A DNA stretch of 64,000 nt from Nocardia tengchongensis (GTDB lineage Bacteria > Actinomycetota > Actinomycetes > Mycobacteriales > Mycobacteriaceae), in contig NZ_CP074371.1 of the NCBI RefSeq assembly GCF_018362975.1, positions 1,798,001 to 1,862,000 of the forward strand, given 5' to 3'. The notes beneath the pieces were generated by a model. That model saw nothing but the letters and a program-made list of their open reading frames with translations, was not told the origin of the DNA and did not search any database. Each line of letters opens with the position of its first letter. The stretch's first letter is position 1. Positions 27,541-29,583 of the stretch are shown piece by piece. Position numbers and translations under genes: made by a program.

Positions 27541-28353
27541 ATGCTGCTGACCATCGACGTCCGCAACACCAGTATCGAGCTGGGCCTGTTCTCCGGCAGC
27601 GGGGAGCACGCGAAGCTGGCGCGGCACTGGCGGATGCACACCAACCCGCTGCTGACGGCCGACGAGTTCGCGTTGCAGGTGCGCGGTCTGATCGGCGCGG
27701 ACGCCGATCAGGTGGTGGGCGTCTCGGCGCTGTCCACGGTGCCGCCGGTGTTGCGTGAACTGCGCGAGATGCTGTCCCGTTATTGGGGGCATGTGCCGCA
27801 CGTGCTCGTGGAACCCGGTGTGCGCACCGGTATTCCGTTGTTGGTCGACAATCCGAAAGAGGTCGGCGCGGACCGGATCGTGAATTGTCTTGCGGCATAT
27901 CACCGTTTCCAATCCCCGGCCATCGTGGTGGATTTCGGGACGGCCATCTGTGTGGATCTGGTCTCGGGTAAGGGTGAATTCCTGGGCGGCAGTATCGCGC
28001 CCGGTGTGGAGATTTCCACCGAGGCGCTGATCTCCCGGAGCGCGCTGCGTCGCGCCGAGTTGACCCGGCCGCGGTCGGTGGTGGGCAAGAACAGCATGGA
28101 GTGCCTGCAGTCGGGGGCGATCTTCGGTTTCGCGGGCCTGGTGGACGGCCTGATCGACCGGATTCGCGATATCGACGCGTTCTCCGGGGACGATGTGGCC
28201 GTGGTGGCGACGGGCGCGACCGCGCCGTTGATCGTGCCGGAGTCGGAGACCATCGAGCATCACGAGCCGAATCTGACGCTGGACGGGTTGCGGCTGGTGT
28301 ACGAGCGCAATCAGCAGCGTCGCGCCCGCACCGGTACAGACCGGCCGGAATAA
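27541..28353 (+). CDS. coaX: Type III pantothenate kinase
   Basis: CoaX phosphorylates pantothenate, the first committed step of CoA synthesis. The ASKHA phosphate motif [11 protein letters not shown] is at residues 5-15, and the second motif [14 protein letters not shown] (about residue 129) and [11 protein letters not shown] (about 149) are intact. Length 270 residues. It is 10 bases after panD and closes the pan operon; a terminator hairpin follows the stop within 15 bases. Confidence 0.95.
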
Positions 28354-28365
28354 AAGTGACGTAGT

Positions 28366-28399
28366 CGTCGCCGGGAGGCGCTGGTGATTCCCGGCGACG
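28366..28399 (+). terminator. Terminator hairpin after coaX
   Basis: CGTCGCCGGGA (28366-28376) and TCCCGGCGACG (28389-28399) form a perfect 11-bp stem with a 12-base loop. It separates the pan operon from the cysteine leader promoter that starts seven bases later. Confidence 0.75.
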
Positions 28400-28405
28400 C
28401 GCTGT

Positions 28406-28411
28406 TAGACT
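28406..28411 (+). promoter_or_regulatory. -10 box for the cysteine-leader transcript
   Basis: TAGACT stands seven bases before the GTG of the leader peptide at 28419. The transcript is therefore expected to begin at the GTG (leaderless). Confidence 0.6.
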
Positions 28412-28418
28412 CGCCCTC

Positions 28419-28460
28419 GTGTCGTTCCGTGTGAGCATCCAGGAGTGTTGTCGAGGCTGA
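28419..28460 (+). CDS. Putative 13-residue leaderless Cys-Cys leader peptide
   Basis: GTG 28419 to TGA 28458 encodes MSFRVSIQECCRG. Two adjacent TGT cysteine codons (28446-28451) lie just before the stop, and the first half of a three-part hairpin set overlaps the end of the peptide. Cysteine-rich leaderless short ORFs acting as cysteine-responsive attenuators are established in mycobacteria. This one sits upstream of a cysteine dioxygenase, a cysteine-degrading gene, which is the context one would want for such a sensor. Translation is inferred from promoter spacing only. Confidence 0.6.
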   Translation: MSFRVSIQECCRG

Positions 28461-28483
28461 TTCGCCTCGACGGTCGTCGAGGC
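28450..28483 (+). promoter_or_regulatory. Mutually exclusive hairpins (putative cysteine attenuator)
   Basis: Arm A GTCGAGGC (28450-28457), arm B GCCTCGAC (28464-28471) and arm C GTCGAGGC (28476-28483) are perfect complements in both A:B (6-base loop) and B:C (4-base loop) combinations, so only one hairpin can form at a time. Arm A overlaps the second Cys codon, the last codons and the stop boundary of the leader peptide, so a ribosome waiting for Cys-tRNA would cover A and leave B:C free to form. No poly-T follows arm C. The switching logic is inference. Confidence 0.6.
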
Positions 28484-28528
28484 TTCGTATAGCCCCCGAC
28501 CACTTTCACATTCCTTGGAGACACGCTC

Positions 28529-29155
28529 ATGCGTTCCTCTGTTCTTTCCTTACCTGTCGATTCTCGTGCCGCCGCGTCGAGCCTCCTGCCGGAGGTCACC
28601 GAGCGCGCCACCGCCTCCGCTCTCCCGACCCGGCTGCGTCCGGCCGACCTGCTGCGCCTGACCGATGAGGGCGCCCAGGACGTGCTGGAGGGCCGCTACG
28701 ATCACCTGCTGCCCGACGACGGCCTGTGGCCCACCGAGAACCGCTGGGCCGCAAGGCTTGTCGCGGACGACGAGGTGGATGTCTGGCTGATCAGCTGGGT
28801 GGAGGGCAAGTACACCGAACTGCACGATCACGCCGGCTCGCTGGGCGCGCTGACCGTGCTGTCGGGCGCGCTCGCGGAATACCGCTGGAACGGCCGCGAC
28901 TTGCGCCGCCGCCTTCTCACCGCCGGTGATCAGGCGTCCTTCCCGCTCGGCTGGGTGCACGACGTGGTGCGGGCCCCCACTCAGTTCATTGACCGAGCCG
29001 AAGCGGGGATCACCGGCCCGCTGAATCCGACTCTGAGCGTGCACGCCTATTCCCCGCCGCTGACGGCCATGTCCTATTACGAGGTCACCGGCCACGGCAC
29101 CCTGCGGCGCACCCGTTCCGTCCTCACCGACCAGCCCGAAGGCGAACTCGAATGA
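28529..29155 (+). CDS. Cysteine dioxygenase family protein
   Basis: A 208-residue cupin of the type I cysteine dioxygenase family, which oxidises cysteine to cysteine sulfinate with iron and oxygen. The metal site is visible in KYTELHDHAGSLGALTVLSG (two His) and the distal His in FPLGWVHDVV. The conserved Tyr region appears in VHAYSPPLTAMSYYEV. ATG 28529 has TTGGAG eight bases upstream. It follows the Cys-Cys leader and overlaps the rhodanese gene (ATGA), so the two form a sulfur-amino-acid catabolic pair. Confidence 0.9.
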   Translation: MRSSVLSLPVDSRAAASSLLPEVTERATASALPTRLRPADLLRLTDEGAQDVLEGRYDHLLPDDGLWPTENRWAARLVADDEVDVWLISWVEGKYTELHDHAGSLGALTVLSGALAEYRWNGRDLRRRLLTAGDQASFPLGWVHDVVRAPTQFIDRAEAGITGPLNPTLSVHAYSPPLTAMSYYEVTGHGTLRRTRSVLTDQPEGELE

Positions 29156-29583
29156 CCAACTTGACGATCGACGGCATGCTCGCCCAGGCGCGCCAGCAGT
29201 TGCGTCGCCTGCTCCCGATCGAATTGCCGCAGGCCATCGCGCGCGGCGCGATTCTGGTGGATATTCGCCCCCAGGCGCAGCGCCTGCGCGAGGGCACGCT
29301 GCCGGGCGCGCTGGTCATCGAGCGCAATGTCCTGGAATGGCGTTTGGATCCGTCCAGTTCCGCGCGCTTGGCGATGGCCGAACACCACGACGTGGAATGG
29401 ATCGTCGTCTGCTCGGAGGGCTACACCTCGAGCCTGGCCGCGGCCTCGTTGCAGCAGCTGGGCCTGCGTCGCGCCACCGACCTCGAGGGCGGATATCAGG
29501 CCTTGAAAGCGGCCGGTCTGCTGACCGTCGCGTCCTCGGCGCCGCACTTCGAACGTGAGGTCGCCACCCTCGCCTGGCTGTAG
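29152..29583 (+). CDS. Rhodanese-like domain protein
   Basis: A single-domain rhodanese of 143 residues. The active-site loop is [17 protein letters not shown] with the catalytic Cys, preceded by [21 protein letters not shown]. It should transfer sulfane sulfur or act on reactive sulfur from cysteine breakdown. The ATG overlaps the cysteine dioxygenase stop, so the pair is co-translated and should share the leader control. The exact sulfur acceptor is unknown. Confidence 0.9.

What the first reader, a model, noticed from the sequence alone, without database searches (positions are those of the whole stretch)
28406..28529. Cysteine-codon leader with switchable hairpins in front of a cysteine-degrading operon
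A leaderless-type promoter (TAGACT, seven bases before GTG 28419) would start an RNA at a 13-residue frame MSFRVSIQECCRG. Its two adjacent Cys codons are followed by three repeats (A 28450-28457, B 28464-28471, C 28476-28483) that allow only A:B or B:C pairing. A ribosome waiting at the Cys codons covers A and frees B to pair with C. After normal termination A:B forms and C is left single. That predicts OFF when cysteine is low and ON when it is high, the reverse of the biosynthetic cysteine attenuators known in mycobacteria. It is the right logic for cysteine dioxygenase plus rhodanese. The switch and its polarity are inference; the sequence elements are seen.
Basis: partly seen in the sequence, partly recalled or inferred. 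Interest (0 to 1): 0.85.

Follow-up and report, generated by a model that had tools for sequence, protein, structure and literature searches.

The report
Cysteine-sensing leader opens downstream start site
A tiny upstream reading frame with two cysteine codons pairs with and hides the start site of a cysteine dioxygenase-rhodanese operon, and a ribosome stalled for lack of cysteine would open it; it looks like a conserved relative of known mycobacterial cysteine attenuators, working in the usual direction and not in reverse.

Summary
The elements are real and conserved. All 37 close Nocardia loci examined (36 genomes) carry GTG...QECCRG-stop 6-7 nt after TANNNT; the leader recurs in Rhodococcus, Rhodococcoides, Aldersonia, Williamsia and Speluncibacter. 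The 'OFF at low cysteine' reading is not supported. Its start-codon half covaries between genera (0 of 1000 row shuffles reach it). A ribosome stalled at the cysteine codons covers the leader side; the computed cost of opening the start site falls by >2 kcal/mol in 83 of 100 leaders and rises so in none, but by only 1.9 in this window. So: ON when cysteinyl-tRNA is short, as recalled for Ms5788A of M. smegmatis. In 19 of 119 named matches rhodanese follows the leader directly, with no dioxygenase there, so rhodanese may be the constant target. New member of a known kind; why cysteine shortage should induce a cysteine dioxygenase is open.

The parts
28403..28411 (+). extended -10 promoter element TGT-TAGACT, seven bases before the GTG
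   Evidence: sequence; TGN-YANNNT 6-7 nt before an in-frame RTG in 80 of 86 leaders of the main group; the transcription start itself not tested
28419..28460 (+). leaderless-type short reading frame, 13 codons and TGA (MSFRVSIQECCRG)
   Evidence: frame kept in 37 of 37 Nocardia loci, with stops TGA, TAA or TAG and one stop shifted by a codon (L027)
28446..28451 (+). two adjacent Cys codons TGT TGT (sensor)
   Evidence: invariant in 37 of 37 Nocardia rows; present in the 100 leaders by construction of that scan
28428..28436 (+). P0 5' arm (leader codons 4-6), pairs with the start codon region
   Evidence: fold; fixed-register covariation over 81 distinct rows
28525..28533 (+). P0 3' arm, contains ATG 28529-28531 of the dioxygenase gene
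28438..28448 (+). P1 5' arm (leader codons 7-10, up to the first Cys codon)
   Evidence: CCAGGAG invariant in Nocardia
28508..28519 (+). P1 3' arm, overlaps the Shine-Dalgarno sequence
   Evidence: 92% of cells paired over 81 rows but no covariation beyond row shuffles
28517..28520 (+). Shine-Dalgarno GGAG of the dioxygenase gene
   Evidence: sequence; TGGAG invariant in 37 of 37 Nocardia rows
28450..28457 (+). arm A
28464..28471 (+). arm B, pairs with A or with C
28529..29155 (+). cysteine dioxygenase type I family gene (208 aa)
   Evidence: PF05995, 41 bits against cut-off 23; best solved relative by sequence 8qfr, E 1.3e-11; no NCBIfam match
29152..29583 (+). single-domain rhodanese (143 aa), start overlaps the dioxygenase stop (ATGA)
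   Evidence: PF00581, 43.5 bits against cut-off 22.2; coordinates
27541..28353 (+). coaX (type III pantothenate kinase), upstream neighbour
   Evidence: PF03309 and NF009845
29643..31208 (+). lysS-like gene (lysyl-tRNA synthetase by recall), downstream neighbour used as a context marker
   Evidence: ORF; not run through a family library; found after the leader in 68 of 80 named loci

Best explanation
A cysteine-responsive translational attenuator. RNA starts at GTG 28419 and a 70S ribosome reads the 13-codon leader. If charged tRNA-Cys is plentiful, the ribosome passes TGT TGT and terminates; the RNA folds so that leader codons 4-10 pair with the Shine-Dalgarno sequence and ATG of the dioxygenase gene (P0+P1), with hairpins A:B and C:D inside the loop, and translation of the dioxygenase and of the overlapping rhodanese is low. 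If charged tRNA-Cys is short, the ribosome waits at the Cys codons, covers the 5' sides of P0 and P1 and arm A, B pairs with C, and the start site is released: ON at low cysteine. Shown: sequence elements, conservation, predicted pairing, covariation of P0. Inferred: transcription start, translation, stalling, and polarity in the cell. The four-arm part is seen in Nocardia and in five of six loci of the g43 clade (R. triatomae/maanshanensis); the other genera aligned have only one arm after A.
For: 37 of 37 close Nocardia loci with the leader. P0 in a fixed register over 81 distinct rows of 11 genera: 82.2% of cells paired; row shuffles 77.9 +/- 0.7%, 0 of 1000 reach it; slid registers 21-56%; two-sided changes such as A-T/G-C/T-A at (-12,-2) and T-A/C-G at (-14,0), where the start codon is ATG or GTG. 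Native 5'/3' block duplexes average -22.2 against -20.1 +/- 0.2 kcal/mol permuted (0 of 300), one row per genus 1 of 2000. Cost of opening Shine-Dalgarno to start codon in Nocardia 14.5 free against 9.5 stalled; over all leaders lowered by >2 in 83 of 100, raised in 0; same direction in all eight loci at four lengths of coding sequence and six footprint choices. No intrinsic terminator found. Where no dioxygenase follows, 7-8 of 9 P0 positions pair with the rhodanese start in 10 of 10 scored Rhodococcus loci.
Against: In this window the relief is only 1.9 kcal/mol, and 4 of 40 spacer shuffles match it; for L085 6 of 40. A ribosome at the stop codon or initiating also lowers the cost (Nocardia 11.1 and 11.1 against 14.5 free and 9.5 stalled), so the difference must come from dwell time. 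For the Shine-Dalgarno bases alone stalling lowers the cost by >1 in 69 and raises it by >1 in 9 of 100 (sums). P1 shows no covariation, and in Nocardia alone 60 of 1000 shuffles reach P0. The 5' blocks of g37, g41, g31, g44 and g47 pair better on average with the Nocardia 3' block than with their own. The seven g50 leaders and the five scored Williamsia loci do not form P0 in this register. A cysteine dioxygenase switched on by cysteine shortage looks wasteful. In R. qingshengii IGTS8 two rhodanese proteins were lower, not higher, on dibenzothiophene than on sulfate (PMC8557817, passages); whether either is this one could not be told.
Confidence: 0.83

Rival explanations
1. One reading: stalling at the Cys codons gives B:C and turns the operon OFF; normal termination gives A:B and turns it ON, which suits a cysteine-degrading enzyme.
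For: A:B and B:C are both kept (335/336 and 306/309 cells); Pfam calls the first gene cysteine dioxygenase type I; two rhodaneses of unknown identity fall in a sulfate-starved Rhodococcus culture (PMC8557817, passages).
Against: No pairing of B or C with the start site was seen in the predicted fold; C pairs with D; 42 rows of eight genera have the leader without B and C; stalling opens the start site in the calculations (0 of 100 leaders the other way by >2); the leader is kept in front of rhodanese alone at 19 of 119 named loci.
Confidence: 0.06
2. Transcription attenuation: C:D (or the whole folded leader) terminates transcription, perhaps with Rho, and B:C is the antiterminator. The polarity would again be ON at low cysteine.
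For: The order A:B, C:D against B:C is the geometry of the trp attenuator (recalled), and C:D is kept (257/267 cells). Rho-dependent termination was proposed for mycobacterial cys leaders (PMC1262725, passages).
Against: No terminator-like site in 28300-28600; 42 rows of eight genera lack arms C and D as a pair; the covarying helix is on the start site of the next gene.
Confidence: 0.09
3. The short frame is conserved for its peptide or as a constitutive RNA structure and does not sense cysteine.
For: The peptide end QECCRG is very conserved, and its DNA is invariant in Nocardia even at third codon positions.
Against: The N-terminal half of the peptide varies while its pairing is kept; in genera with other peptides (MCMCCR, MCCCC, ECCRP) what is shared is adjacent Cys codons at the end.
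Confidence: 0.03

Closest known systems
Polycysteine leaderless short ORF attenuators of M. smegmatis (Ms5788A and others; Canestrari et al. 2020, PMC8764745: not held, abstract recalled; cited in PMC13236596 and PMC9031893, passages)
   Same: leaderless-type start, adjacent Cys codons near the end, first in a sulfur operon, ribosome-binding site of the next gene hidden by structure that a stalled ribosome would block (as recalled); this genome also holds a leader of what I take to be the cysA2 type
   Different: another target (dioxygenase-rhodanese after coaX); the hiding helix reaches the start codon itself and covaries across genera; Nocardia and the g43 clade add a four-arm internal switch. 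Whether the six M. smegmatis loci of that paper include this one could not be checked
Cys leader peptides of mycobacterial cys operons, Propionibacterium acnes and Bifidobacterium cbs (PMC1262725, passages)
   Same: short frames with runs of Cys codons near the stop, no obvious terminator
   Different: cys and cbs targets; no conserved terminator-like hairpins reported there; Nocardia farcinica was in the data set of that paper, but this locus does not appear in the passages seen
trp-type transcription attenuators (recalled)
   Same: mutually exclusive 1:2, 2:3, 3:4 pairings set by ribosome position
   Different: no terminator-like site found here
uORFC-8-2 motif before cysS of Rhodobacterales (PMC8632094, passage)
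   Same: two tandem Cys codons in a uORF with downstream stems
   Different: AUG start; intrinsic terminator; other taxa and other gene

Membership tests
leaderless polycysteine sORF attenuators (Ms5788A type) | RTG at the transcription start, set by the -10 distance | tested here: inconclusive
   TANNNT 6-7 nt before GTG in 37 of 37 Nocardia loci; no start-site map available
leaderless polycysteine sORF attenuators (Ms5788A type) | adjacent Cys codons near the stop of a short frame | tested here: met
   TGT TGT invariant in 37 of 37
leaderless polycysteine sORF attenuators (Ms5788A type) | first frame of a sulfur or cysteine operon | tested here: met
   dioxygenase plus rhodanese follow; of 119 named pattern matches 97 are followed by the dioxygenase and 19 directly by rhodanese, 2 loci end too soon, 1 is a chance match; operon structure inferred from overlap, not from RNA data
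leaderless polycysteine sORF attenuators (Ms5788A type) | structure that hides the next ribosome-binding site and is blocked by a stalled ribosome | tested here: met
   calculation and covariation only; weak energy effect in the window itself
leaderless polycysteine sORF attenuators (Ms5788A type) | expression rises on cysteine limitation | not testable with these tools
   needs reporter or proteome data
classical transcription attenuator | intrinsic terminator before the structural gene | tested here: not met
   0 terminator-like sites in 28300-28600
a described Rfam family | match at the gathering score | tested here: not met
   0 matches in the 64-kb window
cysteine dioxygenase type I (PF05995) | Pfam gathering score | tested here: met
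   41 bits against 23
cysteine dioxygenase type I (PF05995) | activity on free cysteine | not testable with these tools
   HDH and SVHAYSPP are in the alignment (their meaning is recalled); the substrate-binding Arg could not be placed with confidence

The most novel reading that the evidence does not exclude
The regulation says that this dioxygenase-rhodanese pair is not a cysteine-disposal pathway but a sulfur-supply module used when cysteine is short: the dioxygenase would act on other thiols or persulfides and the rhodanese would hand the sulfur on. In Nocardia the nested A/B/C/D switch would add a delay or memory to the opening of the start site.
Probability: 0.3. Interest if true: 0.68.

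Novelty: new member of a known kind. Interest (0 to 1): 0.47.

Why it matters
It extends ribosome-sensed cysteine control beyond mycobacteria to Nocardia, Rhodococcus, Rhodococcoides, Aldersonia, Williamsia and Speluncibacter, at a locus where metabolism would suggest the opposite sign, with comparative evidence for an RNA helix that hides both the Shine-Dalgarno sequence and the start codon. It makes a clear question testable: why would bacteria make a cysteine dioxygenase and a rhodanese when cysteine is short? Species with no dioxygenase at this locus that keep the helix on the rhodanese start suggest that the rhodanese is what the leader is for.

Tried and rejected
Reverse polarity (reader): rejected on arm D, the P0/P1 helix, the stalling calculations and the two-arm relatives. 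Transcription terminator: no terminator-like site. Rfam: no match. P1 alone as the switch: it pairs well, but its arms are near-invariant, so covariation is uninformative. The RNAalifold consensus of Nocardia alone gave 20 pairs with no two-sided change; covariation appears only across genera. Other copies of the motif in the own genome: GGAGTGYTGYCG with up to one mismatch gives 118 forward and 140 reverse hits against 70 and 62 for the reversed pattern, too unspecific to use. A leader before the sirA/cysH genes (identity partly by recall) of the own genome was not found by the strict scan. Rv3599c: no paper in the library. The two rhodaneses of the R. qingshengii proteome could not be tied to this one; they appear in its table and a term search for their numbers alone gave nothing more.

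Rows dropped: of 126 loci scanned, 100 leaders were kept (37 Nocardia of 37; 63 of 80 other family loci; 0 of 9 distant or paralogous loci, L038-L046). Of the 26 dropped, L098, L116, L124 and L041 do show adjacent Cys codons in a short frame; L105, L106, L108, L111, L113, L114, L115 and L125 printed no such frame, L107 only one inside the gene; L103, L104, L118, L122 and L123 fell in the cut part; the rest are the distant loci. 14 of the 100 (g50, g30, g32, g38, g49) were left out of the covariation count and are printed. One search lists nine further, distant matches in Nocardia genomes; two were fetched (L045, L046).

Papers: PMC13236596, PMC1262725, PMC8632094, PMC9031893, PMC9094748, PMC11133741, PMC8557817 and PMC5157978 were seen as passages (PMC8557817 also abstract and outline); PMC9426449 only as a term search without hits; PMC4633059 as passages and section 12. 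Canestrari 2020 was not seen; its abstract is recalled. Searches that could have shown this locus in print: (capped listings); none of the titles or abstracts listed did.

Full report
Observation. The 143-nt RNA from GTG folds better than all but 1 of 200 dinucleotide shuffles (z -3.65). The genes that follow are a cysteine dioxygenase type I family protein and a single-domain rhodanese whose ORFs overlap by ATGA; coaX lies before and a lysS-like gene (by recall) after.

Conservation. The dioxygenase protein was sought in 60 relatives (51 with a match) and in 201 genomes of the family (147 with a match). The 37 close orthologues from the 36 Nocardia genomes (own included) all have the leader: TANNNT 6-7 nt before GTG, then V....QECCRG and a stop, which may be TGA, TAA or TAG and in L027 lies one codon later. 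In their alignment GTG, CCAGGAGTGTTGTCGAGGC and TGGAG are invariant. Two distant paralogues in Nocardia (L045, L046) had no leader by the scan. The strict scan found leaders in 100 of 126 loci (37 of 37 Nocardia, 63 of 80 others of the family, 0 of 9 distant or paralogous loci). In the 80 loci listed, coaX lies before the leader in 78 and the lysS-like gene after it in 68. Identical leader regions in handles and named records assign g1 to Nocardia, g27 to Rhodococcoides and relatives, g43 to the R. triatomae/maanshanensis group, g41 to Aldersonia, g44 to the R. tibetensis/rhodnii group and g46 to Speluncibacter.

First, a fourth arm D (28491-28501) pairs with C. Over 42 four-arm rows (37 Nocardia, 5 of g43) A:B is paired in 335 of 336 cells, B:C in 306 of 309 and C:D in 257 of 267. 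So after normal termination C need not be single. Second, 42 rows from eight genera (g27, g31, g37, g41, g44, g46, g47 and one g43) have no B and C: one arm after A, then the Shine-Dalgarno sequence (sorted by genus and spacer). Third, the whole leader folds so that leader codons 4-10 pair with the Shine-Dalgarno sequence and the start codon of the next gene. Of the 12 folds printed ten show this; L120 keeps only the Shine-Dalgarno half and L101 neither. In the window P0 is 28428-28436 with 28525-28533, which contains ATG 28529, and P1 is 28438-28448 with 28508-28519.

Covariation. With the leader counted from the first Cys codon and the gene from its start codon, P0 sits in one fixed register. 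Over 81 distinct rows from 11 genera 82.2% of cells pair; when the 3' sides are dealt out anew among rows it is 77.9 +/- 0.7% and 0 of 1000 shuffles reach the observed value; registers slid by 1-4 give 21-56%. Without Nocardia (46 rows) it is 75.8% against 70.7 +/- 1.1%, 0 of 1000. Within Nocardia alone the signal is weak (35 rows, 60 of 1000 reach it). Two-sided changes include A-T, G-C and T-A at (-12,-2), T-A and C-G at (-14,0) where the start codon is ATG or GTG, and G-C and C-G at (-17,3). P1 is paired in 92% of cells but its arms hardly vary, so shuffles equal it. Duplex energies of native 5' and 3' blocks of ten genera average -22.2 against -20.1 +/- 0.2 kcal/mol when permuted (0 of 300), and 1 of 2000 with one row per genus; but the 5' blocks of g37, g41, g31, g44 and g47 pair better on average with the Nocardia 3' block than with their own. 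These shuffles do not remove shared ancestry, so they are support and not a probability.

Polarity. With an assumed footprint of 12 nt before to 15 nt after the first base of the P codon, a ribosome with its A site at the first Cys codon covers 28431-28458: six of nine bases of the P0 5' arm, all of the P1 5' arm and all of A. The computed cost of opening Shine-Dalgarno to start codon falls on stalling from 14.5 to 9.5 kcal/mol on average in Nocardia, 15.5 to 7.7 in g31 and 12.5 to 6.8 in g27; over all 100 leaders it falls by more than 2 in 83 and rises by more than 2 in none. A ribosome at the stop codon or at initiation also lowers it, to 11.1 in Nocardia, so discrimination must rest on how long the ribosome waits. 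For the Shine-Dalgarno bases alone the cost falls by more than 1 in 69 and rises by more than 1 in 9 of 100 (summed). For the window itself the fall is 1.9 and 4 of 40 spacer-shuffled versions do as well; six other loci give 0-2 of 40 and L085 6 of 40. The direction is the same in all eight loci tested with four lengths of coding sequence and six footprint choices.

The metabolic puzzle. A cysteine dioxygenase induced by cysteine shortage is unexpected. Two facts help. Dioxygenase and rhodanese stay paired: rhodanese lies downstream in 37 of 37 Nocardia loci, 79 of 80 other family loci and 7 of 9 distant ones, also where coaX is not upstream. And 19 of the 119 named pattern matches, among them R. 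aetherivorans, R. zopfii, R. gordoniae, R. marinonascens and several Williamsia, have rhodanese directly behind the leader with no dioxygenase between; in the ten scored Rhodococcus ones 7-8 of 9 P0 positions pair with the rhodanese start. Whether the dioxygenase was lost there or gained elsewhere was not tested. Against the reading, the R. qingshengii IGTS8 proteome lists two rhodanese proteins as lower on dibenzothiophene than on sulfate (PMC8557817, passages); their place in the genome is not given in the text seen.

Mechanism and class. No terminator-like site is seen and no Rfam family matches, so a translational attenuator of the Ms5788A kind is the best fit. The same genome holds a second leader, VQSNRELMLTRRRTVDLCRLGGCCCLCR, before a 180-aa ORF and a 277-aa ORF that spans the two rhodanese-domain matches at 689576-690346. 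Papers that cite the 2020 work describe attenuation by contiguous Cys codons (PMC9031893, PMC13236596, passages); the paper itself was not held. None of the listings showed a paper on this locus; whether the M. smegmatis loci of that paper include it could not be checked.

Verdict. A real, conserved cysteine-codon leader; new member of a known kind, with the usual polarity predicted, a start-codon helix supported by comparison across genera, and an unexplained target.

Noticed in passing
L309:303-389 (own genome, about 688802): Second leaderless-type Cys leader ending CRLGGCCCLCR, before a 180-aa ORF and a 277-aa two-domain rhodanese: probably the local counterpart of Ms5788A (by recall).
   Followed up: partly
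L152, L159, L175, L182, L189, L199, L207-L209, L212, L213, L220, L233, L236, L240, L242, L248, L253, L256: Nineteen named loci where rhodanese follows the leader directly with no dioxygenase between; in the ten scored Rhodococcus ones the same leader arm pairs with the rhodanese start codon.
   Followed up: partly
L189 (Kitasatospora arboriphila NRRL B-24581 contig): Leader, ribosome-binding site and rhodanese start are nearly those of Williamsia muralis (L233), so the contig may be mislabelled or contaminated.
   Followed up: no
L109, L112, L116, L117, L119, L041: Other Cys-codon leaders (MCMCCR, VRCCR, MCCCC, MCCR, ECCR) stand before dioxygenase genes where coaX was not found upstream; the four scored (L109, L112, L117, L119) pair in only 1-4 of 9 P0 positions. 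Such leaders may have arisen several times.
   Followed up: partly
L027: CGA in place of the leader stop codon; the frame ends one codon later at TAG and stays short, a natural test of the frame.
   Followed up: no
L045, L046: Second, distant dioxygenase paralogues in two Nocardia genomes without a leader found by the scan.
   Followed up: no
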